A stretch of DNA of 32,809 nucleotides, from NCBI GenBank assembly GCA_023701125.1, contig JAMPXO010000052.1:1-32809 (forward strand). Reading direction: 5' to 3'. Positions 1 through 17,599 of the stretch are shown piece after piece (position 1 is the stretch's first letter; each line of letters opens with the position of its first letter). The position numbers were made by a program, and so were the translations under genes. The stretch comes from Vicinamibacteria bacterium (GTDB lineage Bacteria; Acidobacteriota; Vicinamibacteria; Fen-336). The notes under the pieces were generated by a model. That model was given only the letters and a program-made list of their open reading frames with translations. It searched no databases and was not told the origin of the DNA.

Positions 1-20
1 GGGGTCGGGAGGAGGCGTGA
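1..20 (+). CDS. Possible 3' end of an upstream pilus gene
   Basis: In the third frame the first bases read Gly-Arg-Glu-Glu-Ala followed by TGA at 18-20. That stop overlaps the ATG of the next gene by one base (TGATG), the same junction seen at the lipA start (28614-28618). Minor pilin genes usually occur in runs, so a preceding prepilin gene such as a pilV or fimT homologue is expected here. Only five codons are visible, so the identity is inferred from context alone. Confidence 0.3.
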
Positions 21-1117: not shown

Positions 1118-1119
1118 TG

Positions 1120-1926
1120 GTGGTCTCGAACGAACGCCGGCCCGACTCGGGCTTCGCCCTGATCCTGGCGCTGATGTCCCTGGTCCTGCTCACGACGCTC
1201 GGCCTCACCCTGGCGGCGACGACGTCGACGGAGCTGCGGATCGCCACCAACTACCGCTGGAACATGCAGGCCTACTACAACGCCCAGGCCGGGCTGGAGA
1301 TCGGCAAGCGCTTCCTGCGCGACAGCGAGGCGACCTCGCTGGCCGTGTCGACCGACGGCTCCTGGAGCCACCTGTTGTGGCCGGCGCGCGACACCGCCGG
1401 CCTCGCTTCGCCCCCCGACACCAGCGGGTTCACCTCGCGGCCCGGGCCCAACGGCGAGGCCTCGCGCAACTGGGAGATGCAGGACTGCGACACCGACGCC
1501 ACCTATGGGGCCAACGTCGGCCTCGGCTGGGTCGTCGACGATCCGTCGCAGCCCCATCCGTTCCAGAACGTGAGCGAGGCGCTCGGCCGCTCGCTGAACG
1601 GGACGTTCACGATCTGGCTGCGCCGGCCGCTGATCCTGCAGGCGGGAGCCAGCAACAACGACCCGGCCACCTACATCGAGGACGCGACCAACATGACGCT
1701 GATCCTGACGGCGGAGGGCACGGCGCCCTTCACCCAGACCGAGACCAGCGACTACGCGATGGTCAACCGGGCGGTGCGCTACCTGGAGATCCAGCTCAAC
1801 AAGGTCTCCTCGGGCAACGAGTGCGACACCCGCGGCGGGCAGATCGGCGGCGGGGCGGGCGGCACGGGCTTCGACCAGTGCCACACGCTCAGCGACACCC
1901 GCGAAACCAACACGGCGATCAAGTGA
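1120..1926 (+). CDS. pilX: PilX-like minor pilin (PilX_N family)
   Basis: This 268-aa protein has a short N-terminus (VVSNERRPDSGFALILALMS) running into a hydrophobic helix. The helix is followed by an amphipathic stretch ending NMQAYYNAQAGLEIGK, the typical PilX_N signature (Y-x-A-x-AGLE). Unlike a canonical prepilin, it has Leu where Glu5 would be after the SGF site. PilX sits in the pilus priming complex with PilW, PilV and PilY1. Two tandem GTG codons (1117 and 1120) are possible starts. GTG 1120 lies 5 nt after GGAGG at 1110-1114 and just past the pilW stop at 1115-1117. The C-terminal part is Gly-rich with two Cys. Confidence in the family is high; the exact start is less certain. Confidence 0.82.
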   Translation: MVSNERRPDSGFALILALMSLVLLTTLGLTLAATTSTELRIATNYRWNMQAYYNAQAGLEIGKRFLRDSEATSLAVSTDGSWSHLLWPARDTAGLASPPDTSGFTSRPGPNGEASRNWEMQDCDTDATYGANVGLGWVVDDPSQPHPFQNVSEALGRSLNGTFTIWLRRPLILQAGASNNDPATYIEDATNMTLILTAEGTAPFTQTETSDYAMVNRAVRYLEIQLNKVSSGNECDTRGGQIGGGAGGTGFDQCHTLSDTRETNTAIK

Positions 1927-1937
1927 GGCGACCGGTG

Positions 1938-4900
1938 ATGCAGCGAACCAGTTCCGTGGAAGAAGGCCGCTCGCGGCCGCGGGGCCTGCGCCGGGCGGCG
2001 CTGCTCGGGGCGGTGGCCGCCGTGGCCCTGCTGTTCGCGGGCGACCGCGCGTTCCTGCAGTCGACTTCCGAGAGCGGCATCGATCCGCTCGAGGCGCTCG
2101 ACATCCAGGTCAAGAGCAACGTCCTGGTCCTGCTCGACAACTCCGAGGGCATGCGCTCGCCGGTCGACGCGCCGGGGCTGCCCGTGGGCGACGACGACAT
2201 CGAGGGCCGCTTCTTCCAGACGAAGAAGGCGCTGTCCGACGCGATCGCGACCAACGCCGACCGCTTCAGCTTCGGCCTCGTGACGTGGGGCCCGGACTCG
2301 TCGGTGATCAACGGCTTCGGCGTCACCAACGCCTCCAACCAGGCCCAGAACACGCCCGGCGCCTACGACGGCCCGTTCGTCTACGTCTCGGTCGATACCA
2401 CCGCCAGCGCCTACTACGCCGCCACGTCGTGCCTCGACTCAGCCGGCAGCAGCAACACCGTGTCGCGCTTCTTCTGCGCGCCGGAAGCCGACTTCGGCCG
2501 CTTCAGCGGCAACGCCTCGGCCGAGTGGTGGGCGGGCTTCTCCAACTCCTCGGGCGAGAACGCGGGCACTTCGCCGCGCTTCTCGGATCCTTTCCCGCGC
2601 GGCTGCGTGGGCAGCGCCTGCCGCTACTACATGCAGTCGCGGCTGCTGCGCCACGGCGTGCAGTTCGAAGTCAGGCCGTCGGCCACCAGCACGAGCGATG
2701 CCATCGGTGGGGCCTCCACGATCAGTTGCCCGACGCCGCCCACCGGCGTATTCGCCGAGGAAGACCCGGACCGGCCCTGCTTCCAGTTCAAGAACGCCGA
2801 CGACGGCAACGTCACGACCTTCTGGTACGTGTCCACGGCCTTCGCCCCGGAGGGGTCGACGAGCTGCACCGACGCGACGACCGACGAGACGGCCAGCGTC
2901 AACACGACGGGCTGGACCTCGGAGTGCACGGCCGCTCCCGGCGCCGCGACGATCGCCCACATGACCGCTGACCTCGGCGTCGCGGTCCCGGTCGACGACC
3001 TCGTCGGCTCGGGCCTGGTCGCGGACGAGACGGGCACGGTGGCGTCGTCGAAGCACGCGACCGGTCAGACGCTGACCGTGAAGGGCGTGCGCACGGGCAC
3101 CGGCTCGGGCCGGCCGATCGCCGCGGCGCTCGACGTGATCCGCACGGACCGCACCTTCCCGCAGTCGGGCGACGCCGCCGTCGCCGCGCTGCAGTACGAC
3201 TTCGTGCTGCTGGTGACCTCGGGCTCCGACCTGTGCGCCAGCAGTGATCCCGACGAGGCCACGCGGCTGGCCGCCGTGGCGGCCGAGGCGCTGTACGACG
3301 ACGGGCTGCAGCGCGAGCTGCTGATCGTCGGCTTCACCAGCGACGATGAGACGATCGCGCGCCTGAACCGGATCGCGCTGGCCGGCTCCGGCGGCGAGGT
3401 GCAGGCGGACGGGACCGTGACCTGCCCGGCGGGCGTGACCTGCCGCACCGCCTTCATCGCCAACAAGAAGGACCAGATCGACGAGGCCATCCAGGACGCG
3501 CTGGAGATCGCGGCCCGCACCGGCGAGTTCGCGACAGCGGCCGTCACCAACGGCACGGTCTACGAGTTCGGTCCGCTGATCGACACGGACATCAACCCGA
3601 TGGACCCGGCCGTGCGCTACGACCCGCGCCTGAACACCACCTACCAGTCGACGATCGAGATGCCGGGCTGGAAGGGCCACCTCTACGCCTACATCAACGA
3701 CGGTACCGGCACCCGCGTCGGCGACAACCTGAACGACCCGGCCTACTTCGACGCCGGCCAGAAGCTGTACACGACGACCGTCAAGCCGATGCTCGACGCC
3801 ACCGGCGTCAAGCAGCGCTACGAGTTCGCCGACCTGCACGCAAGCGCCACGTCCCGGGACATCCGCACCTCGAGCGCCGCGCTGAAGCGCCGCGTGTTCA
3901 CCTCGTCGCCCTCCGTCGGCTCGGGCGGCTCGGCCTACAACCGGTCCTACACGCGCAGTGGCGACGCCCAGTTCGACGCCGCTCTGTCCACGGGCAGCAA
4001 CGTCGTCTCCGTCTGGCCGCCCAACCAGACGGGGCTGACCAACGGCCTGACCGACATCGACCCCGCGGCCGGAACGACCGGCCCGCTGGACGTGGCGCTC
4101 GGCCTGACCGGCCTGAGCCTCGAGCAGATGCAGACCCTGGGCGCGTGCCAGGAGTCGCTGGAGGCGGGCAACGGCGTGGCCCCGGCCGCGTGCGCGTCGA
4201 CGATCGCCAACGAGCAGCGCGAGATGGTCGTGAAGGAGAGCCGCCAGATCCTGCTGGCGTGGGCGGGTGGCGCCCAGGTGGCCCGTTCCACCGAAGACAA
4301 CCTGCCGCTGCGCGACGCCACCAGCGGCGAACTGCTGTACGAGGCCCGCGACTGGTTGCTGGCCGACTCCACCCTGCCCCAGCCCGTGCTCGTCACGCCG
4401 CCGCTGTCGGCCACCCCGAAGCAGCACGTCAAGGAGTGGCTGCTGTACCGCGACGGCCGCCGCGACACCAACCTCGAGGGCATCCCCGAGGCCTCGAAGG
4501 GCTTCGGCCTCCGCAACCCCGACTTCGACAACGGCGACCCGGAGACGGCGCTGCAGACCAAGCCGCTGATGAGCATCATCTACTCGGCCCACAACGACGG
4601 CCTGCACGCCTTCCGCGCGGGCGGCAACTGCGGCGAGTTCACCGGCACCTCCGCCAACTGCCCGGAGACCGGCGGTGAGGAGCTGTGGAACTTCATCCCG
4701 ATCGACCAGCTCAACAAGGTCTACTACCTGGCGCTGCACCAGAAGGTGTCGCCCCACGTCTACATCGCGACGTCGTCGATCCGCGTCGCCGACGTCTTCG
4801 TGTCCGGCAGCTTCACCACCGGCGGCCAGACCTACGCCGGCCGCTGGCGCTCGGTGCTGTACTTCGGCCGCGGCGCGGGCGGCAAGTTCTACACGGCGCT

Positions 4901-6038
4901 GGACGTGACGGGCGCCGGGCCGTTCACGGACGAGGCGCTCGACACCAACCCGCCGTGGGTGATGTGGAACCGCGGCAACGAGGACTGGCGCGTCCCCGAG
5001 CCGACGACGGCCGACGCCGGCTTCGACGGCATGGGCGAGACCTGGTCGACCCCGGCGATCGGGCGCTCCGAGCAGTACGGCATCGAGTACGTGGCCTGGA
5101 CCGGCTCGGGCTACGGTGACGAGATCACGGAGGGCACGACGTTCTACGTCCTGAACGCGTTCGACGGCTCGATCATCGGCTCGTCGGACGTGGGCCAGGG
5201 CACGCCCACCTACATCGCGTCGAACGCGCTCGTGGCCTCGCCGTCGCTCTACAACGAGTACTACCTCAGGCCGGCCGCGTCGCTGGGCTCGGTCACCGAC
5301 CGCGTGACCCGGGCCTACGTCCCCGACCTCCACGGCCGCATCTGGAGATTCGACGGCACGACCGGCTGGGCCGTGACGACGCTCGGGCCAACGCAGCCGA
5401 TCGCCGATCCCTTGGCGCTGATGATCCTCAACAACGGCTCTGGCGAGAAGGCCTGGATCTTCGGCGGCAGCGGCAACGACACGCGGGTACCCGACAGCGC
5501 CGCGTCGCCGTTCTACATGTTCTCGTTCCCGGACACCTCGACGTCGTCGACGGCGATCAACTTCTACACGGCCGTTCCGCTCTCCCCGGGCTCGACCAAC
5601 CTCGAGGGCTTCCGGCGTCCCTACGTCGACTCGCTCGGAGAGATCTACCGGAACGCCTCCCAGCCCGCGGTCGTGCTCAACGAGGCCGGCAACGGGCGCG
5701 TGTTCTTCCTGGCGCGGCGGTTCGACGGCACGTTCTCGAACTGTACGAACAAGTTCACCTCGTTGCTGTTCGGCCTGGGTGCCGTCAGCGGCGGAGCCGC
5801 CTACGACTTCTCGGGCGACGGCACGGCGGACCTGTTCAGCCAGTTGACGGACACCCGCGCGACGTACCTGAGCATCCAGGGCGGTGGCGTGTACGTGTCG
5901 ACCTCGGGCACGACGACCGGCGTCCCCGCGCCGCCGGCGCCTGCGATCGGTTCGACCGCACCCGCGGCCCCCGAGCCGCCGAGCATGACCGTGACCAACA
6001 TCCGGTCCAACACCCAGGTCTGCGCGACGTTCTTCTAG
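1938..6038 (+). CDS. pilY1: PilY1-like pilus tip-associated adhesin/assembly protein
   Basis: A large exported protein (1366 aa) with an N-terminal signal/membrane segment near residues 16-35. A von Willebrand A-like region follows, starting VLVLLDNSEGM with Asp67. The C-terminal half, from about residue 850, is rich in Trp/Gly/Asp blades (SIIYSAHNDGLHAF, RSVLYFGRGAGGKFYTALDV) typical of the PilC/PilY1 beta-propeller. Near the C-terminus D1290-x-S-x-D1294-G-x-x-D1298 resembles an EF-hand-like calcium loop. PilY1 works at the pilus tip and in priming assembly, and in some species in adhesion and surface sensing. The vWA metal site looks degenerate: DNSEG instead of DxSxS, and TSGSD where TDG-x-D is usual. 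ATG 1938 is chosen; in-frame GTGs at 1923 and 1935 are alternatives. It is the last gene before a strong hairpin. Confidence 0.88.
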   Translation: MQRTSSVEEGRSRPRGLRRAALLGAVAAVALLFAGDRAFLQSTSESGIDPLEALDIQVKSNVLVLLDNSEGMRSPVDAPGLPVGDDDIEGRFFQTKKALSDAIATNADRFSFGLVTWGPDSSVINGFGVTNASNQAQNTPGAYDGPFVYVSVDTTASAYYAATSCLDSAGSSNTVSRFFCAPEADFGRFSGNASAEWWAGFSNSSGENAGTSPRFSDPFPRGCVGSACRYYMQSRLLRHGVQFEVRPSATSTSDAIGGASTISCPTPPTGVFAEEDPDRPCFQFKNADDGNVTTFWYVSTAFAPEGSTSCTDATTDETASVNTTGWTSECTAAPGAATIAHMTADLGVAVPVDDLVGSGLVADETGTVASSKHATGQTLTVKGVRTGTGSGRPIAAALDVIRTDRTFPQSGDAAVAALQYDFVLLVTSGSDLCASSDPDEATRLAAVAAEALYDDGLQRELLIVGFTSDDETIARLNRIALAGSGGEVQADGTVTCPAGVTCRTAFIANKKDQIDEAIQDALEIAARTGEFATAAVTNGTVYEFGPLIDTDINPMDPAVRYDPRLNTTYQSTIEMPGWKGHLYAYINDGTGTRVGDNLNDPAYFDAGQKLYTTTVKPMLDATGVKQRYEFADLHASATSRDIRTSSAALKRRVFTSSPSVGSGGSAYNRSYTRSGDAQFDAALSTGSNVVSVWPPNQTGLTNGLTDIDPAAGTTGPLDVALGLTGLSLEQMQTLGACQESLEAGNGVAPAACASTIANEQREMVVKESRQILLAWAGGAQVARSTEDNLPLRDATSGELLYEARDWLLADSTLPQPVLVTPPLSATPKQHVKEWLLYRDGRRDTNLEGIPEASKGFGLRNPDFDNGDPETALQTKPLMSIIYSAHNDGLHAFRAGGNCGEFTGTSANCPETGGEELWNFIPIDQLNKVYYLALHQKVSPHVYIATSSIRVADVFVSGSFTTGGQTYAGRWRSVLYFGRGAGGKFYTALDVTGAGPFTDEALDTNPPWVMWNRGNEDWRVPEPTTADAGFDGMGETWSTPAIGRSEQYGIEYVAWTGSGYGDEITEGTTFYVLNAFDGSIIGSSDVGQGTPTYIASNALVASPSLYNEYYLRPAASLGSVTDRVTRAYVPDLHGRIWRFDGTTGWAVTTLGPTQPIADPLALMILNNGSGEKAWIFGGSGNDTRVPDSAASPFYMFSFPDTSTSSTAINFYTAVPLSPGSTNLEGFRRPYVDSLGEIYRNASQPAVVLNEAGNGRVFFLARRFDGTFSNCTNKFTSLLFGLGAVSGGAAYDFSGDGTADLFSQLTDTRATYLSIQGGGVYVSTSGTTTGVPAPPAPAIGSTAPAAPEPPSMTVTNIRSNTQVCATFF

Positions 6039-6053
6039 ATTTCGGATTCTGAA

Positions 6054-6084
6054 CAGGTGGAGGGCCTTTCCGGCCCTCCACCTG
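6054..6084 (+). terminator. Hairpin terminator after the pilus operon
   Basis: A perfect 13-bp inverted repeat (6054-6066 with 6072-6084) encloses a 5-nt loop, TTTCC. It starts 15 nt after the pilY1 stop. The stem is extended and GC-rich, but the downstream U-tract is weak (AGAAACCACTTTAA). It may therefore act as a weak intrinsic terminator or as a 3'-end stabilising stem. It separates pilY1 from the next unit. Confidence 0.7.
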
Positions 6085-6113
6085 AGAAACCACTTTAATC
6101 GCCCCGGTGGCGG

Positions 6114-6122
6114 TGCTAGGCT
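6114..6122 (+). promoter_or_regulatory. Extended -10 promoter, probably for a leaderless mRNA
   Basis: TGCTAGGCT fits the extended -10 form TGnTAnnnT and ends 6 nt before the ATG at 6129, so transcription would start at or next to the A of the start codon. There is no Shine-Dalgarno between it and the ATG, and a terminator-like hairpin lies just upstream. The same element recurs before other genes in this window. No convincing -35 was found. Confidence 0.5.
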
Positions 6123-6128
6123 TCGCCC

Positions 6129-7238
6129 ATGGCCCAGCCACAGTTCCGGACCTGCCCGGCCTGCGGGACCCGCAACAAGCCGGCGTGGGAGTTCTGCGTC
6201 CGCTGCGGGGAATCCGTCGCCGAGGTTCCGCTCGGTACCGATGCTCCGGCCGCGACCGCAGCTGCGGGAGCCGTGCCGGCTACAGAGGGCGGGGTGGGGC
6301 CCGTGCTCCTGCTGGCGGTCGTGGCGCTGGGCCTCGCGGCCTGGGCCGCGACCCGCATCCAGATCCCGCGCGACGAGATCAGTTCCACGGCCTTCACGGC
6401 GGCCACGATGCCGCCCGCCGACAAGCCCACGGCCGCGTCCGAGGCGCTCAGTGAACTCGACGAGGGGCTGCGGCTGCTGCGGTCCGGCAAGCCCGAGAGC
6501 GCGCTCGGCAAGCTCGAGGAGGCGGCGCTGGGCGACCCCACCGACGCCGCGGCCCAGCACGCCTACGCCCAGGCGTTGTGGGTCACGGGCAACCGGGATC
6601 GGGCGATGACGTTCTACATCGCCGCGGCCCGGCTCGCCCCGGAGGACGTGCAGTACCTCTCCGACGCCGCCCGCGTCTGCACGGCGATGAACCGCCGCCC
6701 GGAGGCCATCGGCTTCTATCGGGCGCTGCTCGACGTGCAGCCCGACACGCCTGCGGCCCTGCGCAGCCTGTCGCAGCTGCTGATGGAGTCGGGCGGAGGG
6801 GCCGAGGCCGTCGACCTGCTGCGGCGGGCAGTGACGCTGGAGCCCGACAGCGTGGTGCTCGGCACCGATCTCGGGTACGCGCTCGAGCGCCTGGGCCGCG
6901 GGCCTGAGGCGGCCGAGGCCTACCGGCAGGTGCTTGGCGTCGATGCCACGGCCGACGTGGCGCGGGCGCGGCTGGTCGACCTGGAGTTCAAGGCGGGTCG
7001 CCCCGAGCAGGCCATGACCCTGGTCCAGGACGCGATCCGCGCCCATCCCGACCAGCCGGGGCCGCACCGTTCGCTCGCCACCCTGCTCGAGCGGATGGGC
7101 CGGCCCGCAGAGGCGGCGGCCGCCTACCGCGAGTACGCGCGGCTCGCGCCCAACGCCGCCGACGCCAAGGCCCTGGAGCAGCGGGCGGCGGCGCTCGAGG
7201 CCACCCCGGCTCCGGCCCCCACCGGCACCTCGTCGTGA
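6129..7238 (+). CDS. Zinc-ribbon membrane protein with TPR repeats
   Basis: A 369-aa protein in three parts. A short zinc ribbon comes first, with Cys9, Cys12, Cys23 and Cys26 (CPAC...CVRC). One hydrophobic segment around residues 57-75 (VLLLAVVALGLAAWAATRI) follows. From about residue 100 to 355 it is a run of TPR-like helical hairpins with NxA/ALxxxP spacing. The expected topology is a cytoplasmic zinc ribbon with the TPR domain in the periplasm, where it would serve as a protein-binding scaffold. It heads a tight unit with a secreted coiled-coil protein (4-nt overlap) and a sigma-54 activator. There is no Shine-Dalgarno at the ATG, but an extended -10 sits immediately upstream. No specific function can be named. 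Confidence 0.85.
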   Translation: MAQPQFRTCPACGTRNKPAWEFCVRCGESVAEVPLGTDAPAATAAAGAVPATEGGVGPVLLLAVVALGLAAWAATRIQIPRDEISSTAFTAATMPPADKPTAASEALSELDEGLRLLRSGKPESALGKLEEAALGDPTDAAAQHAYAQALWVTGNRDRAMTFYIAAARLAPEDVQYLSDAARVCTAMNRRPEAIGFYRALLDVQPDTPAALRSLSQLLMESGGGAEAVDLLRRAVTLEPDSVVLGTDLGYALERLGRGPEAAEAYRQVLGVDATADVARARLVDLEFKAGRPEQAMTLVQDAIRAHPDQPGPHRSLATLLERMGRPAEAAAAYREYARLAPNAADAKALEQRAAALEATPAPAPTGTSS

Positions 7239-7807
7239 AGCGGCTCCTGGCCGCAGCCCTGGTGGCGACGCTGGTCGCGCCCGTGGCGACGGCGCAGGAG
7301 ACGAGCCTGGCCGAGGCCGCGCGGCGCGAGAAGGAACGCCGCAAGGCGCAGAAGAAGGACGGTGCGGCGGCCACCACCTTCACCGACGAGGACCTCAAGG
7401 CCGATCGCGAGGGCAGCGGCACGGTCTCGTCGCCCGCGGCCGCTGGCACCCGCGCTGCGAGGCCGGGCGCCGCTCCGCCTGCGGCGGGCGGCGGCGAGGC
7501 CGAGGGCAAGGCGTGGTTCAACCGCGCCGAGACGCTGCGCAAGTCGATCGCGGCCGCGGAAGAGCGGATCCCGAAGCACGAGCAGCGCATCGCCGAGTTG
7601 CGCAACGACAACGCGCCGAACCCCGACGACCTGCTCGACCCCAACCGGCTGCAGAAGCGCGAGGCGGAAATCCACCGGCTGCTGGCGGAGATCGAGGCGG
7701 CGCAGGCCGAGGTCGTGCGCCTGAAGCAGGCCCTCTCCGACCTGGAGGACGAAGCCCGCGCCAAGGGCATCCCGCCGGGCTGGCTCGAGGGGCGCTTCTC
7801 TGGCTGA
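7235..7807 (+). CDS. Secreted coiled-coil protein, 'PGW-tail' family
   Basis: A hypothetical 190-aa protein with a clear signal peptide, cleaved probably after residue 20 or 21 (LVAPVATAQ^E). A basic segment leads to FTDEDL (residues 49-54), then a Pro/Ala-rich linker. A long charged coiled coil runs from about residue 90 to 175, and the tail is ARAKGIPPGWLEG. The FTDxDL motif and the ARxxGxxPGW tail recur in the minus-strand protein at 17600-18136, so the two look paralogous. The GTG start overlaps the upstream TGA as GTGA, implying translational coupling. A periplasmic location is inferred; the function is unknown. Confidence 0.8.
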   Translation: MKRLLAAALVATLVAPVATAQETSLAEAARREKERRKAQKKDGAAATTFTDEDLKADREGSGTVSSPAAAGTRAARPGAAPPAAGGGEAEGKAWFNRAETLRKSIAAAEERIPKHEQRIAELRNDNAPNPDDLLDPNRLQKREAEIHRLLAEIEAAQAEVVRLKQALSDLEDEARAKGIPPGWLEGRFSG

Positions 7808-9164
7808 CGTCCTCGTCGTCGAAGACAAGGAGTCGCTGCGCGCGGTCCTGCGCAAGACGCTGGAGCAGCGCGGGCTGAGCGCCGACGAGGCCGCCGACGC
7901 CTACGTCGCCCGCAAGCGGCTCGCCGCCTTCCGCTACCTCGTCGTGCTGACCGACCTGCGGCTGCCCGCGGGCAGCGGCTTCGACGTGATCGACGCCGCT
8001 CGCGAGGCCGACGCGGATGCGGCCGTGATCGTGATGACCGCCTTCGGCGGCGTCGAGGAGGCCGTGCGCGCCATGAAGGCGGGCGCCACCGACTTCCTGA
8101 CCAAGCCCGTCGACACCGAGCACCTGATGCTGCTGGTGGGGCGGGCGATCGAGCGGCGGCGACTGCTGACCGAGAACGTGCTGCTGCGCGAGGACGCCCA
8201 GCGCCGTTTCGGGCTGCCGCGCGTGCTCGGCGACGCCCCCGAGTTCCAGGAGTGCCTGAAGGCCGTGCAGCGCGCGGCCGGCACCGACGCCAACGTGCTG
8301 CTGACCGGGGAGAGCGGCACGGGCAAGGAACTGCTCGCCCGCACGCTGCACCAGCTCTCGGCACGGGCCAGGGGCTCGTTCGTCGCCATCAACTGCGCCG
8401 CGATCCCCGAGCAGTTGCTGGAGAACGAGCTGTTCGGCCACGAGAAGGGCGCCTACACGGGCGCCGGCGCGCGCAAGGTGGGCAAGGCGGAGCTGGCCCA
8501 CCAGGGCACGCTGTTCCTCGACGAGATCGGGGAGCTGGCGCCGGCGCTGCAGGGCAAGATCCTGCGCCTCGTCCAGGAGCGGGAGTTCGAGCGGGTCGGC
8601 GGGCTGCAGACGCTGTCGGTCGACCTGCGGCTGGTGGCGGCGACCAACAAGGACCTGCGCGCCGCGGTCGCGAACAAGGAGTTCCGCGAGGACCTGTTCT
8701 TCCGGCTGTCGGTGTTCCCGGTGGAGATCCCGCCGCTGCGTCGGCGCCGCGGGGACATCCTGAAGCTGGCGGAGGATCACCTCGACCGCCAGGCCCGCGA
8801 ACTCGGCCGCAAGGGCCTGCGTTTCTCGGAGGCGACCCGCAAGGCGCTGGTCGATCACGCCTGGCCGGGCAACGTGCGCGAGCTCCACAACTGCGTCGAG
8901 CGCGCGGCGATCCTGTCGAAGGGCCTCGAGATCCAGCCCGCCGACCTGCGCCTCGACCCCGCCCAGGGCGGTCCGCGGATCGCCGACGTGATCGACCTCT
9001 CGGGCACGCTGGCGGACGTCACCCGCCGGGCGACGTCACTGGCCGAGTCGGAGGCCGTCCGGCTGGCGATGGCGGAGGCCGCCGGCGATCGGGTGATCGC
9101 CTCCGCACGGCTGGGCCTCAGCCCCCAGGCGCTGGCCCGGAGACTGAAGCCCGACCCGGACTAG
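7800..9164 (+). CDS. NtrC-family sigma-54-dependent response regulator
   Basis: A 454-aa transcriptional activator with all three NtrC-type domains. The receiver domain has acidic pair E8/D9, phospho-acceptor Asp52 (LTDLRLP), Thr80 and Lys102. The AAA+ domain has Walker A GESGTGKE (170-177), the sigma-54 contact loop GAYTGA (217-222, Tyr variant of GAFTGA) and Walker B FLDE (D241/E242). The C-terminus is a Fis-like helix-turn-helix (ASARLGLSPQALARRL). The frame has no ATG, GTG or TTG before codon 49, which would remove the acidic pair. CTG at 7800 is therefore the likely start; GAGGGG lies 7 nt upstream and the start overlaps the previous gene by 8 nt. No histidine kinase is adjacent, so its signal is unknown. 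I saw no -24/-12 promoter in the intergenic regions here. Confidence 0.9.
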   Translation: MADVLVVEDKESLRAVLRKTLEQRGLSADEAADAYVARKRLAAFRYLVVLTDLRLPAGSGFDVIDAAREADADAAVIVMTAFGGVEEAVRAMKAGATDFLTKPVDTEHLMLLVGRAIERRRLLTENVLLREDAQRRFGLPRVLGDAPEFQECLKAVQRAAGTDANVLLTGESGTGKELLARTLHQLSARARGSFVAINCAAIPEQLLENELFGHEKGAYTGAGARKVGKAELAHQGTLFLDEIGELAPALQGKILRLVQEREFERVGGLQTLSVDLRLVAATNKDLRAAVANKEFREDLFFRLSVFPVEIPPLRRRRGDILKLAEDHLDRQARELGRKGLRFSEATRKALVDHAWPGNVRELHNCVERAAILSKGLEIQPADLRLDPAQGGPRIADVIDLSGTLADVTRRATSLAESEAVRLAMAEAAGDRVIASARLGLSPQALARRLKPDPD

Positions 9165-9168
9165 CGGG

Positions 9169-10992
<1,824 letters not shown>

Positions 10993-11041: not shown

Positions 11042-12157
11042 ATGTCCGAACCTTGCGGACGCGGCGCGCGCCCCCCCTTGCGGCTCCTGCACGTCACCCC
11101 GTTCTACGCGGACCCGGCCTTCGGCGGCATCGCCCGCGCCAGCCAGGCGCTGTGCCGCGCGCTGGCGGCGCGGGGCCACCATGTCACGGTCGTCACGGCC
11201 CGCCTGGCACCCGACCTTCCCGCGCTGGCGGACGACGCCGGCGTGCAGGTGCTGCGCCTGCCCGGGCCGCGGGCGGCCGTGCAGGCGCGGCTGCCGTGGC
11301 CGCGCGGCGTGGCCCGGGTGCTGGCCGGGCTGGGCGCCTTCGACGTCGTCCACCTCCACGGCGCTCGTCACGGCCTGGCGGTACCGGCAGCCGCCTGCGC
11401 CGCGCGCTGCGGCGCACCGCTGGTGGTGCAGCCCCACGGCACCCACCCCGATCACGCGCAGCGACGGTTCGCCAAGCGCGTCTACGACGTCGTCTGGGGC
11501 CGCCGCGTGTGGCGGGCCGCGGCGGCCGCACTGGCCGTCAGCCAGGCCGAGGCACGCGACCTGCCGCGCCGCGCCGAGGTCGTGCCCAACGGGGTCCTTC
11601 CGCTGCGCTGCACGGCGCCCGCGCCCGAGCGCGTCCCGGGCCGCCTGCTGTTCGTCGGCAACCCGAGCGTCCAGAAGCGCGGCCGCGCGCTCCCCGCACT
11701 GCTCGCGGCGCTGCCGGCCGCGTCGCTGCACGTCGTCGGCCCGGTCGACGCCCGCTTCCGGGCCGCGTTCGCCCGCTTCGGCGCGCGGGTCAGCTTCGAC
11801 GGCGTGCTGGCCGGCGAGGCGCTGGCGAACGCCTACGCGTCCGCGGCGCTGCTCGTCCACCCGGCGGTAGGCGAGGCGTTCGGCCTGGTCCCGTTCGAGG
11901 CCGCGCTGCTGGGCACGGCTGGCGTCGTCGCGGGCGCCCACGGCTGCGGTGAGTGGTACGCGGAGGCCGGCGGCGCGTGCGTGCCCGCCGACGCCGCGGA
12001 CGCGCTGGCAGCGGCGGTCGCGGCGCGGCTTGCGGACCCGGCGCTGGCCGCCGCCGAGGCCGCGCGGGTCGCGGCCTTCGTGGGCCGCCACCTGACCTGG
12101 GACGCAGCCGCGCGGACCGTGGAGGCGCTCTACATCCGACTCCGGGCCGGCGCTTGA
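11042..12157 (+). CDS. Family 4 glycosyltransferase (GT-B fold)
   Basis: A 371-aa GT4-type glycosyltransferase. The N-terminal Rossmann-like domain begins LLHVTPFYADPAFGGIARAS, the usual Gly-rich GT4 opening, followed by DVVHLHGARHGLAVP. The C-terminal nucleotide-sugar domain has GRLLFVGNPSVQKRG and LLVHPAVGEAFGLVPFEAALLG, the E-x7-E region of GT4 enzymes. It should act at the cytoplasmic membrane face, adding a sugar to a lipid-linked or surface glycan. Donor and acceptor cannot be read from sequence. It overlaps the next glycosyltransferase by 4 nt (TTGA), so the pair is likely co-translated. Confidence 0.9.
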   Translation: MSEPCGRGARPPLRLLHVTPFYADPAFGGIARASQALCRALAARGHHVTVVTARLAPDLPALADDAGVQVLRLPGPRAAVQARLPWPRGVARVLAGLGAFDVVHLHGARHGLAVPAAACAARCGAPLVVQPHGTHPDHAQRRFAKRVYDVVWGRRVWRAAAAALAVSQAEARDLPRRAEVVPNGVLPLRCTAPAPERVPGRLLFVGNPSVQKRGRALPALLAALPAASLHVVGPVDARFRAAFARFGARVSFDGVLAGEALANAYASAALLVHPAVGEAFGLVPFEAALLGTAGVVAGAHGCGEWYAEAGGACVPADAADALAAAVAARLADPALAAAEAARVAAFVGRHLTWDAAARTVEALYIRLRAGA

Positions 12158-13185
12158 GCGGCCCGCGCGTCGCCGCGGTCGTCGTCAACCACGACGGCGG
12201 CGCGCTGGTGGAGGCCGCCGTCGACAGCCTGCTCGCGCAGCAGGGTGTCACGATCGAAGTCGTCGTCGTCGACAACGCCTCGCGCGACGGCTCGCCGGAC
12301 CGGCTCGGCGAGCGCTTCGCGGGCCGCATCCGCCTGTTGCGCGCGGTGGGCAACGTCGGCTTCGGCGGCGGCTGCAACCTCGGCGTCGCTGCGACCGACG
12401 CGCCGTGGGTGCTGCTGCTGAACCCGGACGCGCGAGCCGTGCCCGACCTCGCGGCGCGGCTCGTGGCCCGTGCGGTCGCAGACGAGCGGGTCGGCATGGT
12501 TGCGCCCAAGGTCTGGCTGGAGAGCGACGAGCGACCGCCGCGGCTCGACACCTGCGGCCACCTGTTGTTCCCGGACGGGCTCAACCGCGGTCGCGGCCGG
12601 CTCGAACCGGACCGCGGCCAGTACGACGGCCTGACCGAGGCGCTGTTCCCGAGCGGCGCGGTCGCGCTGTTCCGCCGGGCGGCCCTCGACGAAGCGGGCG
12701 GCTTCGACGAGAGCTACTTCCTCTACGGCGACGACGCGGAACTGGGTTTGCGCCTGCGGCTGCTGGGCTGGCAGTGCGCGTTCGAGCCACGGGCCAACGC
12801 CTGGCACCACTACTCCCAGTCAGTCGGCGCGTGGTCCGAGCTGAAGGCCTACCACGTCGAGCGCAATCGCGTGCTGGTGCTGCTCTCGTTGCTGCCGTGG
12901 ACCTGGGTCGTGGCCAGCCCCGCCTGGACCACGCTACGCCTCGGGCTGATGGCGTGGGGCGTGCTGACCGGGCGCGGCGCGGCCGCGCGGCTGGGCGAGA
13001 GTCGGTCGCGGCTCACGCTGCCGCGGGTCGCGTTGCGGGCGTGGTGGGACGCGGCCCAGCGTGCCCCGGCCGCGCTGCGCCAGCGGCGGCGGCTGTGGCG
13101 CAACGCCCGGCTGTCGGCGGGCGAGTGGCGAGCGCTGCTGTCCCGCTATCGACTGGGCGTGCGCGAGGTCGCGCTCAAGGACTGA
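12154..13185 (+). CDS. Family 2 glycosyltransferase, rhamnosyltransferase-like
   Basis: A 343-aa GT-A enzyme. It opens VAAVVVNHDGG, then VVVVDNASRDGS (Asp40) and the metal-binding region LLLNPDARA (Asp92), where NPDA is typical of WbbL-like rhamnosyltransferases. Acceptor-side motifs are FPSGAVALFRR and FDESYFLYGDDAELGLRL. A hydrophobic, arginine-rich C-terminus probably binds the membrane. The TTG at 12154 overlaps the upstream TGA. An ORF running further upstream in this frame is only the GC-rich shadow of the GT4 gene. The 3' end overlaps the convergent TPR protein gene by 11 nt. A role in surface polysaccharide synthesis is inferred from family and neighbour. Confidence 0.9.
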   Translation: MSGPRVAAVVVNHDGGALVEAAVDSLLAQQGVTIEVVVVDNASRDGSPDRLGERFAGRIRLLRAVGNVGFGGGCNLGVAATDAPWVLLLNPDARAVPDLAARLVARAVADERVGMVAPKVWLESDERPPRLDTCGHLLFPDGLNRGRGRLEPDRGQYDGLTEALFPSGAVALFRRAALDEAGGFDESYFLYGDDAELGLRLRLLGWQCAFEPRANAWHHYSQSVGAWSELKAYHVERNRVLVLLSLLPWTWVVASPAWTTLRLGLMAWGVLTGRGAAARLGESRSRLTLPRVALRAWWDAAQRAPAALRQRRRLWRNARLSAGEWRALLSRYRLGVREVALKD

Positions 13186-14884
13186 GCGGACGCTGTTGCA
13201 GCGCCGCCAGTTCGTCCTTCAGTCGCACCAGTTGGGCGCGCTGCTCAGGTGGCAGGCGCAGGCCCTCCGCCCGCGCCAGCAGGGGTGCGGCGCCGGCCGC
13301 GTCTTCGCGGGAGAGCCGGATCGCGGCCAGGTTCAACAGCGCCTGGGGCGCCGGCGGCGACAGCGCGGCCGCGCGCTCGAAGGTCCGCTCGGCGAGGTCC
13401 ATGCGTTGCGCCTGCGCCTGCAGGGATCCGAGGTTGGAGAGCATCCGCGAGTCGGTGGGGCTCAACGCGACGGCCCGTTGCATCGGGGCGAGCGCTTCGG
13501 CGAAGCGCCTTTCGCCCGCCAGCGCGGCCGCCAGGTTCGACCAGCCGCGCGGGTCGGCGGGTGCCAGCTCGGTGACCCGACGGAAGTGCCCCCGGGCCCT
13601 CGCGTGGTCGCCGCGGTGGAGTCGGGCCAGCCCCAGCCCGAGCTGCGCTTCCGGCGCGTCGGGGTTGCGCTCGACCGCCGCGGCCCACGCGGACTCGTCG
13701 TTCGACAGGGTGCGTTGTTCGAGCACGGCGCGAGCGGTCATCACGATCAGGGCCGCCGCCGCCAGCGGCGCGCGGCCCGGCGTGGCGAGCGCTCCGGCAG
13801 CCACCCACGCCGCGCCGAGGCTGCCGGTGTAGGCGCGGTGGTCGACCACGAGTTCCTTGAGCGGGACCAGGGTCGAGGACGGTGCCAGCACGGCGGCCAT
13901 CCACGCGGCGGCGAACGCGAGCCGCGAGCGGGGGTGACGCAGGGCCCAGGCCAGCAGCGCGATCAGCAGGCCGACCAGCAGCAGCGTGCGCGGGTCCGGC
14001 GGCCACGAGGCCGGGGCCGCGCCCCGGTGGAAGGCGGGGTCGAGCGGCAGCAACGCGCGCAGCAGGTAGCCCGGGAATTCCAGCGCCTGGGTGGCGAGCC
14101 AGGTGCCGTGGGGCCACACCGGCTCGGGCAGCCACGAGCCGACAACGAGCCGTCTGACCCCGAAGCCGACGACGGGCAGCAACAGGAACGCCAGGTGCAG
14201 CCGCCAGCGCCCGGCGACCTCCGCGAGTCGGCCGTGAGCCGGGCCGTGGAGGTCGAGCAGGACGAGGAGCACGGGGAAGGCCGCGGCTTCTTCTTTCGTC
14301 GCGAGGGCCATCAGCAGCACCAGCCAGCAGCCGGCGCGGCGCCGGGGCCGCGGCGCCTGGATCTCGCCGGCGGCGAGGACCAGGAAGAGGAGGCCCAGGA
14401 AAGCGCAGAGCCCGGTCGAACGACTGGAGACGTAGGCGACGGTCTCCGCGGCCATCGGCGTGCAGGCGAAGAACAGGCCTGCGAACAGCGCCTGGCGCGC
14501 GGGAGTGGCCTCGCCGCGGGAGAGCGCGAGCCAGAGCACGAGCCGCGCCACCAGCGCGGCGCAGCCGGCGTGGAGCAGGATGTTGGGCAGGTGGAAGGCC
14601 CACGGCTCGAGGCCGCCGAGCAGCGTGCTCGCCACCCACGACAAGGTCAGCAACGGCCGCGCGGGATCGAAACGCAAGAGCGCGTCGAGGTTGCCGGGGT
14701 CCTGCAGCACGGGATTGTTCACGACCATGCGCACGTCGTCGTAGAGGAACTCGCCGCGCAGCGAGGGCAGCCAGACCGCCAGCGCCGCGATGAAGGGCAG
14801 CCAGGCGGCGGCCGAGGCCTCGCGGGGCGAGCCTGAGGAGGCCGGCGTTGATGACGACGCCTGCGGCCGTGGGCGTCGACTCAC
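13175..14884 (-). CDS. TMTC-like GT-C membrane glycosyltransferase with TPR domain
   Basis: A 569-aa protein with about nine hydrophobic segments in residues 28-400, then at least three TPRs (about 440-560; e.g. NPDAPEAQLGLGLARLHRGD). After the first membrane helix it has GEFLYDDVRMVVNNP (Asp49/Asp50), then RPLLTLSW and AFHLPNILLH. These are hallmarks of the bacterial relatives of TMTC protein O-mannosyltransferases, where the Asp pair lies in the first extracytoplasmic loop of a GT-C fold. Such enzymes take sugar from a polyprenyl-phosphate carrier outside the membrane. A polyprenyl-P glycosyltransferase gene lies one gene upstream. GTG 14884 forms a GTGA overlap with the previous stop; longer starts would cover that neighbour. 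Activity and substrate are inferred. Confidence 0.8.
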   Translation of the reverse strand: MSRRPRPQASSSTPASSGSPREASAAAWLPFIAALAVWLPSLRGEFLYDDVRMVVNNPVLQDPGNLDALLRFDPARPLLTLSWVASTLLGGLEPWAFHLPNILLHAGCAALVARLVLWLALSRGEATPARQALFAGLFFACTPMAAETVAYVSSRSTGLCAFLGLLFLVLAAGEIQAPRPRRRAGCWLVLLMALATKEEAAAFPVLLVLLDLHGPAHGRLAEVAGRWRLHLAFLLLPVVGFGVRRLVVGSWLPEPVWPHGTWLATQALEFPGYLLRALLPLDPAFHRGAAPASWPPDPRTLLLVGLLIALLAWALRHPRSRLAFAAAWMAAVLAPSSTLVPLKELVVDHRAYTGSLGAAWVAAGALATPGRAPLAAAALIVMTARAVLEQRTLSNDESAWAAAVERNPDAPEAQLGLGLARLHRGDHARARGHFRRVTELAPADPRGWSNLAAALAGERRFAEALAPMQRAVALSPTDSRMLSNLGSLQAQAQRMDLAERTFERAAALSPPAPQALLNLAAIRLSREDAAGAAPLLARAEGLRLPPEQRAQLVRLKDELAALQQRPLSP

Positions 14885-15507
14885 GCTTTGCCTTCCCCGG
14901 CCTGCAGCCGCGCCAGATCGGCAGGCGTGTCGATTCCCCGCCGGCAGCCCGGGCCGGCCGCGACCTCGACCACTTCGAACCCGCCCGCCAGCACGACCCG
15001 CGCTCCTTCGTCCGGGGGGGCGGCCCGCAGGGCTTCGAAAGTCGAGCGCGAAAAACCGCCGGGGTGGCCGCGGCGGCCGGCGTGGACGGGGACGGCGATC
15101 GCTGCGCCGCGAGCCAGCGCGGCGACCACGGCGTCGACCGTGACCACGTCCACCGCCGGGTGGTCGACGGGGTGCAGCAGGACCGCATCGGCACCGGCGC
15201 GGGCCGCGTTGTCGAGCCCGCGCAGCACGGACGACAACATGCCGCCGCTCTCCCAGCCGTCGTTCACGACCCACGCGACGCCCGCTCCCGCGGCGTTCTC
15301 GGCGGCCGAACGCGCCCGCGCTGCTTCGCAGCCGAGCACGACCACCCTCAGCGCGATGGCGGGGTGGTCGTAGAGGCGCAGTGCGCGCGCGAGCAGCGTC
15401 TCGCCGCCGAACTCGACCAGCGCCTTGGGGCCGCCCATGCGGCGACCCGCGCCGGCGGCGAGGATCAGGGCCGCGATCCGCCGCGCGCCGCGCTCCCGAG
15501 CCGTCAG
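14881..15507 (-). CDS. MocA/MobA-like nucleotidyltransferase
   Basis: A 208-aa single-domain NTP transferase. The N-terminal signature LILAAGAGRRMGGPKAL binds the nucleotide. HPVDHP provides the metal-binding Asp, and GRRGHPGGF and GIDTPADLARL follow as in MocA (molybdopterin cytidylyltransferase). No molybdenum enzyme or cofactor gene is nearby, so another acceptor, perhaps a sugar phosphate, is possible. No ATG, GTG or TTG precedes the signature. CTG at 15507 makes a CTGA overlap with the upstream stop, exactly like the GTGA and TTGA junctions of its neighbours, so I take it as the start. It sits between two glycosyltransferase-type genes. Confidence 0.82.
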   Translation of the reverse strand: MTARERGARRIAALILAAGAGRRMGGPKALVEFGGETLLARALRLYDHPAIALRVVVLGCEAARARSAAENAAGAGVAWVVNDGWESGGMLSSVLRGLDNAARAGADAVLLHPVDHPAVDVVTVDAVVAALARGAAIAVPVHAGRRGHPGGFSRSTFEALRAAPPDEGARVVLAGGFEVVEVAAGPGCRRGIDTPADLARLQAGEGKA

Positions 15508-16481
15508 CGCCTCGCGGGCGCGGCGAGGCCCAGGCGCTGCCGCACGACGTAGAGCGGCCGCCCGCGGACCTCGTCGTAGATGCGGCCGACGTAGTCGCCG
15601 AGCAGGCCGAGGCAGACGAGCGTGGCGCCCGCCAGCAGCATCTGGCCGCACAGCAGCGCCGGCCAGCCCCAGGCCCCGGCGTCGCCGGCGAGCGCCACCA
15701 GCAGCAGCGCGGCCGAGGCCGGGATCGCCAGCAGCAGCGCCAGTACGCCCAGCACCAAGGCCAGCCGCAGCGGCGCGACGGAGAACGCGGTGAGCGCGTC
15801 CCACGACAGCCGGAACATGCGCCGGAAGGGGAACTTGGTCTCGCCTGCCGCCCGCCCCGGGCGCTCGAAGTCGAGTGTCGTCTGGCGGAAGCCGAGCCAC
15901 GAGACGAGGCCGCGCACCAGCCGGTGCCGCTCGCGCATTCCGCCCAGCGCGTCGACCACGGCCCGGCTGATCAGCCGGAACTCGCCGACGTTCGGCGTCG
16001 GCGGGCGATCCGCGAGCAGGCCCATCACCTTGTAGAAGCCCTCCGCCGTCAGCTTCTTGAACGCCGTCTCGCCCTGCCGCGCGCTGCGCCGGGCGTGGAC
16101 CACGTCCCAGCCCTCGCGGTAGAGCGCCACCATCTTCGGCACCAGTTCGGGCGGGTCCTGCAGGTCCGCGTCCATCACCACGATGGCGTCGCCGCTGGCG
16201 TGGTCGAGGCCCGCGGTGATCGCGGCGGGGTGGCCGAAGTTGCGCGAGAAGTCGAGCGCCTTGAAGCGCGGGTCGACGCGGGTCGCGGCCGCGATCAGCC
16301 CCCACGAGCCGTCGACGCTGCCGTCGTTGACGAGGATCGCCTCGCAGCCGGCCGCGCAACCGTCCATCACGCCGCGCAGGCGCTCGACCAGCAGTGGCAG
16401 CACCTCCTGCTCGTTGCAGATCGGGACCACCAGCGAGAGCTTCGGCTCGCCGCGCGCGTCTTCGGGCAGCGGGGCGCTCAC
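15504..16481 (-). CDS. Polyprenyl-phosphate glycosyltransferase (GtrB/ArnC/DPM1-like)
   Basis: A 325-aa family 2 glycosyltransferase with the domain order of undecaprenyl-phosphate sugar synthases. Motifs are VVPICNEQEVLP, VNDGSVDGS (Asp53) and MDADLQDPPEL (Asp104/Asp106). The region GETAFKKLTAEGFYKVMGLL and the acceptor motif NVGEFRLISRAVVDAL follow. Two C-terminal transmembrane hairpins (about 230-300) precede GDYVGRIYDEVRGRPLYVV, typical of GtrB. It would move a sugar from a nucleotide donor to polyprenyl phosphate at the cytoplasmic face. The GTG at 16481 overlaps the aroB TGA by 4 nt. Its likely user is the GT-C/TPR protein two genes on. The sugar is unknown. Confidence 0.92.
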   Translation of the reverse strand: MSAPLPEDARGEPKLSLVVPICNEQEVLPLLVERLRGVMDGCAAGCEAILVNDGSVDGSWGLIAAATRVDPRFKALDFSRNFGHPAAITAGLDHASGDAIVVMDADLQDPPELVPKMVALYREGWDVVHARRSARQGETAFKKLTAEGFYKVMGLLADRPPTPNVGEFRLISRAVVDALGGMRERHRLVRGLVSWLGFRQTTLDFERPGRAAGETKFPFRRMFRLSWDALTAFSVAPLRLALVLGVLALLLAIPASAALLLVALAGDAGAWGWPALLCGQMLLAGATLVCLGLLGDYVGRIYDEVRGRPLYVVRQRLGLAAPARR

Positions 16482-17581
16482 GAGCGGGCCCGGGTTTCGC
16501 GCGTCGCCATCACCTTCAGCGCCGCCCGCACGTCGGCGGCCGTCACGTCCTGGCGCAGCACGACGCGGCCGATCGCGGCGGGCAGCACCCACGTCAGCTT
16601 GCCGGCGCGCGCCTTCTTGTCGCGGGCCGTCGCGGCCAGCAGCCGGGCCGGGTCGAGATCGGAGACCCGCGGTCGCGGCCCCAGCGCGTCGACGGCGCGG
16701 GCGATCGCGTCGAAGCCCTTCTCGCGCAGCAGGCCCTTGCGGTGGGCGATCCAGGCGGCGCCGATCAGGCCCCAGCCGACCGCCTCGCCGTGGGTGAAGC
16801 GGCGGAAGCGGGTGACGGCCTCGAGCGCGTGGCCCAGGGTGTGGCCGAGGTTCAGCACCCGGCGCAGGTCGCCTTCGCGCTCGTCGCGCTCGACCACCGC
16901 GGCCTTGACCCGCACCGCGTCGGCGATCGCGTTCTCGAGTGCGATGCGGTCCCAGCCGACCAGCCGCGGCGGGGCCTCGGCCAGCACCCGGAACAGGTCG
17001 CGGTCGGCCAGCAGCGCGCACTTCAGGATCTCGTAGGCGCCGCTCTGGTGCTCGCGCGGTGGCAGCGTCTCCAGCAGTTCCGGGTCGGCGACGACCGCCC
17101 GCGGCTGGTGGAACGCGCCGATCACGTTCTTGGAGGGCGGGTGATTGATGGCGCACTTGCCGCCGACGCTGCTGTCGACCATCGACAGCAGCGTCGTGGG
17201 GATTGCGACCCAGTCGATTCCCCGGTTCCAGGTGGCCGCCGCCAGGCCCGCCACGTCGGAGGCCGCGCCGCCGCCCACCGCCACGACCAGCCCGTCGCGG
17301 CCGAGCGCTGCGTCGTAGAGCGCGTGCCACAGCGCCTCGAGCGTGGCGACGGTCTTGGCCGCTTCGCCGTCGGGCACGAAGGCGCGGTGCAGCGGCTTGC
17401 CCAGCCCCCGCAGCGGCGCCTCCAGGCGGTGGCCGTGCAGCGACCACACCTTGCGCGTGGTGACCAGCAGCGTGGGCCGGCCGGCGAAGGGGGCGAGCAG
17501 GCCACCGAGCAGCCGCGAGGCGCCGTGGCCGATGCTGACCGCGTACCGCCGCGCGCCCAGTTCGACCGGAACCTCGATCAT
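16478..17581 (-). CDS. aroB: 3-dehydroquinate synthase
   Basis: Second step of the shikimate pathway: converts DAHP to 3-dehydroquinate using NAD+ and a divalent metal. The 367-aa protein is of normal length. It has VPDGEAAKT, VGGGAASDVAGLAAATWNRG (NAD site), PTTLLSMVDSSVGGKCAIN, LNLGHTLGHALE and HGEAVGWG (metal-binding residues). ATG 17581 is preferred over an in-frame GTG at 17599 because the extra codons include a rare TTA and the family start is MIEV-like. The GGGAASD loop departs slightly from the common GGGVIGD. The gene follows the 178-aa secreted protein gene and overlaps the glycosyltransferase by 4 nt. Confidence 0.95.
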   Translation of the reverse strand: MIEVPVELGARRYAVSIGHGASRLLGGLLAPFAGRPTLLVTTRKVWSLHGHRLEAPLRGLGKPLHRAFVPDGEAAKTVATLEALWHALYDAALGRDGLVVAVGGGAASDVAGLAAATWNRGIDWVAIPTTLLSMVDSSVGGKCAINHPPSKNVIGAFHQPRAVVADPELLETLPPREHQSGAYEILKCALLADRDLFRVLAEAPPRLVGWDRIALENAIADAVRVKAAVVERDEREGDLRRVLNLGHTLGHALEAVTRFRRFTHGEAVGWGLIGAAWIAHRKGLLREKGFDAIARAVDALGPRPRVSDLDPARLLAATARDKKARAGKLTWVLPAAIGRVVLRQDVTAADVRAALKVMATRETRARS

Positions 17582-17589
17582 GCGGCGCG

Positions 17590-17595
17590 AGCATA
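17590..17595 (-). promoter_or_regulatory. Possible -10 element close to aroB
   Basis: On the minus strand TATGCT lies 8 nt before the aroB ATG, with no Shine-Dalgarno between. It resembles the element before the GT4 gene at 11025-11030. It would give aroB a leaderless transcript in addition to read-through from the upstream gene. Support is positional only. Confidence 0.3.
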
Positions 17596-17599
17596 ACAC

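What the first reader, a model, noticed from the sequence alone, without database searches (positions are those of the whole stretch)
13175..16481. DPM1/TMTC-like pair: possible periplasmic glycosylation cassette
A GtrB/ArnC/DPM1-like polyprenyl-phosphate glycosyltransferase, a MocA-like nucleotidyltransferase and a GT-C membrane protein with the TMTC-type YDD...N and RPLLTL...HLxNxLLH motifs plus TPRs are linked by 4-nt overlaps. In eukaryotes DPM1 makes Dol-P-Man and TMTC proteins O-mannosylate targets. The same logic in one bacterial operon, with a nucleotidyltransferase that might make the donor, would be an undescribed protein or glycan modification route.
Basis: partly seen in the sequence, partly recalled or inferred. 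Interest (0 to 1): 0.6.

Follow-up and report, generated by a model that had tools for sequence, protein, structure and literature searches.

The report
TMTC-like GT-C glycosyltransferase gene cluster

Summary
The genes are real. On the minus strand aroB, a GtrB-like polyprenyl-phosphate glycosyltransferase, a MocA-like nucleotidyltransferase (NT) and a GT-C/TPR membrane protein are joined by 4-nt overlaps. The GT-C fold is supported: an AlphaFold2 model of the membrane domain (pTM 0.88) finds ArnT, STT3 and PglB as its top ten PDB matches. The protein is homologous to DUF1736-bearing TMTC-like proteins, but has no DUF1736 match itself and altered RxD, KE(T/Q)xxT and ERxxY motifs.

The "three-gene cassette" does not hold up. 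The order is kept in all three genomes of this genus (class Vicinamibacteria) and was seen nowhere else. In five related genomes the membrane protein sits in another module, GT4–TMTC-like–GT2, without GtrB. The NT belongs to an older aroB–OTC–NT–bipA neighbourhood found in six genomes without the membrane protein; it matches no sugar-1-phosphate nucleotidyltransferase family and is probably a bystander.

Best reading: extracytoplasmic glycosylation with a polyprenyl-phosphate sugar, probably of a surface glycan, less likely of protein. The logic is known from Gtr three-component systems and the S. mutans Pgf operon. Acceptor and sugar are unknown. Interest is modest.

The parts
13175..14884 (-). 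TMTC-like GT-C membrane protein, 569 aa (GTG start): membrane domain residues ~20-392, TPR domain ~400-540
   Evidence: TPR; 11-sequence alignment; hhalign to DUF1736-positive homologs; AF2 model; ArnT/STT3/PglB top PDB matches
14881..15507 (-). MobA/MocA-like NTP transferase, 208 aa, CTG start; probably a positional neighbour and not part of the glycosylation module
   Evidence: PF12804; TIGR03310 below cut-off; ancestral aroB-OTC-NT-bipA neighbourhood
15504..16481 (-). GtrB/ArnC/PgfS-like polyprenyl-phosphate glycosyltransferase (GT2 domain plus C-terminal membrane helices), 325 aa, GTG start
   Evidence: GtrB sll0501, 248 bits; PHROG GtrB; at this locus only in the genus
16478..17599 (-). 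aroB, 3-dehydroquinate synthase; first overlapping gene of the minus-strand run
   Evidence: TIGR01357 over cut-off
11953..13185 (+). GT2 family glycosyltransferase (GT2b); conserved partner of the membrane protein in five related genomes, convergent here; the ORF opens at 11953 but homology begins at ~12112, so the true start is probably downstream
11042..12157 (+). GT4 family glycosyltransferase; conserved partner of the membrane protein in five related genomes

Best explanation
The membrane protein is a GT-C glycosyltransferase working in the periplasm with a polyprenyl-phosphate-linked sugar as donor. In this genus the linked GtrB-like enzyme loads that sugar from a nucleotide sugar onto the lipid on the cytoplasmic side; the lipid is flipped by an unidentified flippase, and the GT-C protein transfers the sugar to an acceptor. 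The acceptor is most likely a surface glycan or lipid-linked oligosaccharide built by the GT4 and GT2b enzymes encoded next door, with the periplasmic TPR domain recruiting the acceptor or a partner protein. Shown: the genes, the fold class (by model), the conserved DD, RP, KE and D residues, the GT4-TMTC-like-GT2b module, and the restriction of the GtrB linkage to the genus. Inferred: donor, direction, acceptor, TPR role and topology. The NT is probably not part of it.
For: Membrane domain modelled at pTM 0.88; the top ten PDB matches are all GT-C enzymes: ArnT, STT3, PglB. D49/D50, R76/P77, K197/E198 and D282 are invariant, matching motifs that PMC7801869 links to catalysis and lipid-phosphate-sugar binding. 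The linked partner is a GtrB/ArnC/PgfS-type enzyme. GT4-TMTC-like-GT2b lie together on one strand in 5 of 5 orthologous loci outside the genus. The best-scoring more distant homologs mostly lie beside a divergent GT4, some with an ABC-2 permease or ABC ATPase as in polysaccharide-export loci.
Against: GtrB is not beside the membrane protein in any related genome examined outside the genus, so the two are not obligate partners. No GtrA-type flippase was found in the genome. In the window the GT-C gene is on the opposite strand to GT4/GT2b. PDB matches are weak by E-value (best 2.8e-3), although all the top ones are GT-C. The acidic residue of the RxD motif is replaced by T/S.
Confidence: 0.5

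Rival explanations
1. Protein O-glycosylation: the GT-C protein, fed by GtrB, transfers one sugar to Ser/Thr of secreted or membrane proteins, as TMTCs, bacterial PMTs and the S. mutans Pgf proteins do; the TPR domain selects the protein.
For: Homology to TMTC-like proteins and a C-terminal TPR domain; the nearest NCBIfam family of GtrB is PgfS, whose operon modifies adhesins (PMC5856776).
Against: The stable partners are GT4 and GT2 enzymes, not a protein substrate; distant homologs sit in polysaccharide-type loci; TMTC-defining DUF1736 is absent.
Confidence: 0.2
2. Type IV pilin glycosylation, TfpW-like: the GT-C proteins decorate pilins or minor pilins encoded nearby.
For: The window holds a prepilin-type gene (17-1114), and in G001/G002 a paralog of the GT-C gene lies directly upstream of prepilin peptidase and minor pilin genes on the same strand. 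TfpW is a GT-C enzyme that arabinosylates pilins (PMC11841053).
Against: The pilus cluster lies beside ntrC/bipA also in relatives without an ortholog of the GT-C gene (G004, G008, G013), so the closeness of the window copy is old synteny. The paralog in the window's own genome and the order-level orthologs are not near pilus genes.
Confidence: 0.1
3. One reading: the NT makes the activated sugar, GtrB loads it on lipid, the GT-C protein uses it, as one dedicated three-gene route.
For: Three adjacent genes kept in order in 3 of 3 genomes of the genus.
Against: NT is MobA/MocA-like with no sugar nucleotidyltransferase family match over cut-off, and lies in an aroB-OTC-NT-bipA neighbourhood in six genomes without an ortholog of the GT-C gene. 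The genome has four molybdenum-hydroxylase genes that a MocA-type enzyme could serve.
Confidence: 0.06
4. Independent genes: GtrB serves one of the other ~28 PMT_2-type GT-C proteins of the genome, and its linkage with the TMTC-like gene is operon packing only.
For: 28 PMT_2 and 46 GT2 matches in the genome; at least four GT2/PMT_2 pairs within 1 kb elsewhere. GtrB absent next to orthologs outside the genus.
Against: GtrB and the GT-C gene stay close and co-directional in all three genomes of the genus, and the pairing is biochemically sensible.
Confidence: 0.14

Closest known systems
Eukaryotic TMTC1-4 O-mannosyltransferases (GT-C with TPR; Pfam TMTC_DUF1736)
   Same: Membrane GT-C domain followed by TPRs; DD in the first loop, RP and KE kept; best PDB fold match ArnT, as reported for TMTCs in PMC7801869
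   Different: No DUF1736 match; RxD is SRST, KE(T/Q)xxT is KEEAA, ERxxY is DHRAY; no evidence for mannose or a protein acceptor
Gtr three-component O-antigen modification (GtrA/GtrB/Gtr-type) and the GT136 pentofuranose systems (PMC11127046)
   Same: GtrB-type polyprenyl-phosphate sugar synthase plus a GT-C enzyme, next to glycosyltransferases of a probable surface glycan
   Different: No GtrA flippase found in the genome; GT-C carries TPRs; MATE-type flippase not searched
Streptococcus mutans pgfS-pgfM1-pgfE-pgfM2 protein-modification operon (PMC5856776)
   Same: PgfS-like GT2 coupled to a multi-pass PMT/GT-C-type protein and a nucleotide-related enzyme gene
   Different: PgfM1 is PMT-2 type and is not described with TPRs; PgfE is a sugar epimerase whereas the NT here is MobA/MocA-like and a likely bystander; substrates unknown here
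TfpW of Pseudomonas (GT-C pilin arabinosyltransferase; PMC11841053)
   Same: GT-C enzyme near type IV pilus genes
   Different: Pentofuranose pathway not looked for; the pilus neighbourhood occurs also without the GT-C gene
DUF1736-positive TMTC-like proteins of other Vicinamibacteria (L064-L067)
   Same: Full-length homology of the membrane domain and TMTC-like motif order
   Different: They keep GRAD or similar, KES and ERLLYLP-type motifs; the window group is a separate branch

Membership tests
TMTC (TMTC_DUF1736 family) | Match to Pfam PF08409 (TMTC_DUF1736) | tested here: not met
   No match in the window protein or its orthologs, while 4 other Vicinamibacteria genomes have over-cut-off matches
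TMTC (TMTC_DUF1736 family) | GT-C membrane fold | tested here: met
   AF2 model pTM 0.88; ArnT, STT3, PglB are the top 10 PDB matches, prob 0.99-1.00, TM 0.41-0.48
TMTC (TMTC_DUF1736 family) | C-terminal TPR array | tested here: met
   TPR_2, TPR_16, TPR_17 and others over cut-off
TMTC (TMTC_DUF1736 family) | DD in first loop (M1) | tested here: met
   D49 D50 invariant
TMTC (TMTC_DUF1736 family) | RxD (M3), KE(T/Q)xxT (M4) and ERxxY (M7) | tested here: not met
   SRST, KEEAA and DHRAY instead; R of M3 and K, E of M4 kept
TMTC (TMTC_DUF1736 family) | O-mannosylation of proteins from a dolichyl/polyprenyl-phosphate mannose donor | not testable with these tools
   Needs biochemistry
GtrB/ArnC polyisoprenyl-phosphate glycosyltransferases | GT2 domain with C-terminal membrane part, alignable over full length to GtrB/ArnC structures | tested here: met
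   GtrB sll0501 over residues 14-319, 248 bits; ArnC 176 bits; DPMS only 62 bits over the GT2 domain; PHROG GtrB
GtrB/ArnC polyisoprenyl-phosphate glycosyltransferases | Sugar specificity | not testable with these tools
   NCBIfam PgfS 237.8 bits against a cut-off of 500; ArnC 177.6 against 529, so neither equivalog is reached
Molybdenum cofactor cytidylyltransferase MocA | Reaches the curated MocA score | tested here: not met
   TIGR03310 86.7 bits against a cut-off of 186; fold family PF12804 is over its cut-off
Sugar-1-phosphate nucleotidyltransferase (donor maker) | Match to a sugar-nucleotidyltransferase family | tested here: not met
   Only NTP_transf_3 and IspD among Pfam matches at E<=0.01; weak partial GlmU matches far below cut-off
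Gtr three-component system | GtrA-type flippase (PF04138) | tested here: not met
   No match in the 95%-complete genome
Pgf operon | PMT_2-type membrane protein with PgfS and a sugar epimerase | tested here: not met
   No PMT_2 match in the window contig; no epimerase among the cluster's genes

The most novel reading that the evidence does not exclude
A distinct bacterial branch of TMTC-like GT-C/TPR enzymes, confined so far to one order of Vicinamibacteria, transfers an unusual sugar (RxD acidic residue lost, DHRAY in place of ERxxY) from a GtrB-made lipid donor onto secreted proteins chosen by the periplasmic TPR domain, making it a bacterial parallel of TMTC O-glycosylation.
Probability: 0.12. 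Interest if true: 0.55.

Novelty: new variant of a known kind. Interest (0 to 1): 0.25.

Why it matters
TMTC-like GT-C/TPR proteins are frequent in these bacteria, and no paper found here tests the function of one. This locus offers a small genetic setting (a GT-C protein linked to its probable donor enzyme, with two partner glycosyltransferases) in which the acceptor of the family could be settled. It also warns that overlap-linked genes can be inherited neighbours and not a pathway.

Tried and rejected
NT as donor-making enzyme: rejected on family match and on the older aroB-OTC-NT-bipA neighbourhood. DPM1 as nearest relative of the GT2: rejected, GtrB/ArnC/PgfS are much closer. Direct PDB sequence search with the membrane-domain profile: one chance hit only. 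Fold search with the full-length model was swamped by TPR structures, so the membrane domain was modelled alone. Pilus genes as acceptor cue: weakened because the pilus cluster is beside ntrC/bipA in genomes without an ortholog of the GT-C gene. Promoter/terminator scan gave nothing above shuffles. Literature searches found no experimental study of a bacterial TMTC-like protein in the library used. NT presence tracks molybdenum hydroxylases only loosely: both absent in G003 and G006, but G010 and four f3 genomes have hydroxylases and no NT match, and G009 (63% complete) has the NT and no hydroxylase.
Full report
What is there. The window is contig C202 of a 5.4 Mb, 95%-complete genome. On the minus strand aroB (16478-17599), a GtrB-like GT2 (15504-16481), a MobA/MocA-like NT (14881-15507) and a 569-aa membrane+TPR protein (13175-14884) follow each other with 4-nt overlaps. 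The NT has no usual start codon upstream of its LAAGAGRRMGG motif; only CTG at 15507 fits. Convergent to the membrane gene lie a GT2 (GT2b) and a GT4 gene, followed by a gene read by eye as bipA on the minus strand. The name GtrB-like rests on a full-length match to GtrB sll0501 (248 bits) and ArnC (176 bits), against 62 bits for a dolichol-phosphate mannose synthase, and on PHROG GtrB and NCBIfam PgfS as best families.

The membrane protein. Pfam sees only the TPRs. Eleven relatives share a 393-position membrane domain with D49, D50, R76, P77, N101, H105, R155, K197, E198, D282 and DHRAY (348-352) invariant. An AlphaFold2 model of this domain from ten sequences reaches pLDDT 84 and pTM 0.88. 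Its first ten PDB matches are ArnT (5f15, 5ezm), STT3/OST and PglB, with probability 0.99-1.00 and TM-score 0.41-0.48; E-values are weak, best 2.8e-3. PMC7801869 reports ArnT as the best template for human TMTCs too. A profile comparison with four TMTC-like proteins of the class, three with an over-cut-off DUF1736 match, aligns 390 columns with 99.9% probability. It is not a TMTC by the tests that define that family: DUF1736 does not match, and the RxD, KE(T/Q)xxT and ERxxY motifs are changed to SRST, KEEAA and DHRAY. A graded series links the groups: GRAD/KES/ERLLYLP, then QRTE/KET/ERRMYLP, then GRSE/KET/EHRVYLA, then SRST/KEE/DHRAY. A tree puts the window group with its family- and order-level relatives in one clade with full support.

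Synteny. The order aroB-GtrB-NT-membrane protein is found in all three genomes of the genus. The aroB/GtrB GTGA overlap is seen in G001; the NT/membrane-protein junction overlaps (ATGA) in G001 but not in G002; the GtrB/NT overlap is in neither congener. Outside the genus, orthologs of the membrane protein were found in three more genomes of the family and two of the order. In all five it lies between the GT4 and the GT2b gene on one strand, and in none is GtrB beside it (the G016 contig ends inside GT2b). At the stringency used (E<=1e-40) the GtrB matches outside the genus are at most 45% identical and lie elsewhere. Of 20 further loci of distant homologs in the class, seven of the best-scoring lie beside a divergent GT4 (L099-L102, L104-L106). 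L099 and L101 also carry an ABC-2 permease and L104 an ABC ATPase; none of the 20 has a strong GtrB neighbour. These look like surface-polysaccharide loci, a reading that rests on the family matches of a few genes and on inspection of the rest.

The nucleotidyltransferase is a neighbour. It is found in most genomes of the family. In G004, G007, G008, G011, G012 and G013, where no ortholog of the membrane protein was found, it lies near bipA with ornithine carbamoyltransferase and/or aroB on the other side as far as the contigs reach. The same stretch continues through ntrC into a type IV pilus gene cluster in G008 and, in part, in G004 and G013. The glycosylation genes are therefore most simply an addition to an old chromosomal neighbourhood that already held aroB, the NT and bipA. 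The NT matches NTP_transf_3 and, below cut-off, MocA. The genome has four molybdenum-hydroxylase genes and no other NT homolog at E<=1e-12. A cofactor role is plausible but not shown.

How it probably works. GtrB loads a sugar onto polyprenyl phosphate in the cytoplasm, an unidentified flippase turns it over (no GtrA in the genome), and the GT-C protein transfers the sugar in the periplasm. The conserved GT4 and GT2b partners point to a glycan acceptor. A protein acceptor, as for TMTCs or the S. mutans Pgf proteins (PMC5856776), is the main rival. A pilin acceptor is a weaker one: a paralog lies directly upstream of prepilin peptidase, histidine kinase and prepilin genes in G001 and G002, but not in the window's own genome. 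The genome also has 28 PMT_2 and 46 GT2 matches, with at least four GT2/PMT_2 pairs within 1 kb elsewhere, so a GT2/GT-C pair by itself is unremarkable here.

Novelty. The logic is known: Gtr systems and GT136 systems modify polysaccharides with polyprenyl-phosphate sugars and GT-C enzymes (PMC11127046), and pgfS-pgfM1-pgfE modifies proteins (PMC5856776). What is new is a divergent TPR-bearing GT-C branch linked, in one genus, to a GtrB-type enzyme. No experimental work on a bacterial TMTC-like protein was found in the papers searched, so its function remains open.

Noticed in passing
window 15504-15510; L034 ~5617-5660; L035 ~8350-8395: The NT gene has no ATG/GTG/TTG start before its nucleotide-binding loop in the window; CTG in a CTGA overlap is the best fit. 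In both congeners the start is also unclear (CTG, or a GTG inside the first strand).
   Followed up: partly
L032 2398-8492; L033 6755-8401: A 43-44% identical paralog of the GT-C/TPR protein lies directly upstream of, and on the same strand as, prepilin peptidase, histidine kinase and prepilin genes in G001 and G002; in the window's own genome (L031) it has other neighbours (PIG-L, S9 peptidase).
   Followed up: partly
window 1-10992; L122, L123, L125-L128: Pilus genes, a zinc-ribbon/TPR protein, a sigma-54 activator and bipA form a neighbourhood conserved across the family.
   Followed up: partly
L036 3476-4783: A conserved 435-aa protein between ornithine carbamoyltransferase and the NT has no Pfam match; it resembles cyclic 2,3-diphosphoglycerate synthetase by eye (unverified).
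   Followed up: no
L103, L108, L117: In three genera of another family (f14) a more distant GT-C homolog follows proS next to aroB.
   Followed up: no
G000 (whole genome): 28 PMT_2 and 46 GT2 matches but no GtrA-type flippase.
   Followed up: no
L048, L049, L051: GtrB homologs in other Vicinamibacteria lie beside a methyltransferase gene; in L049 a weak PMT_2-type membrane protein is close by.
   Followed up: no
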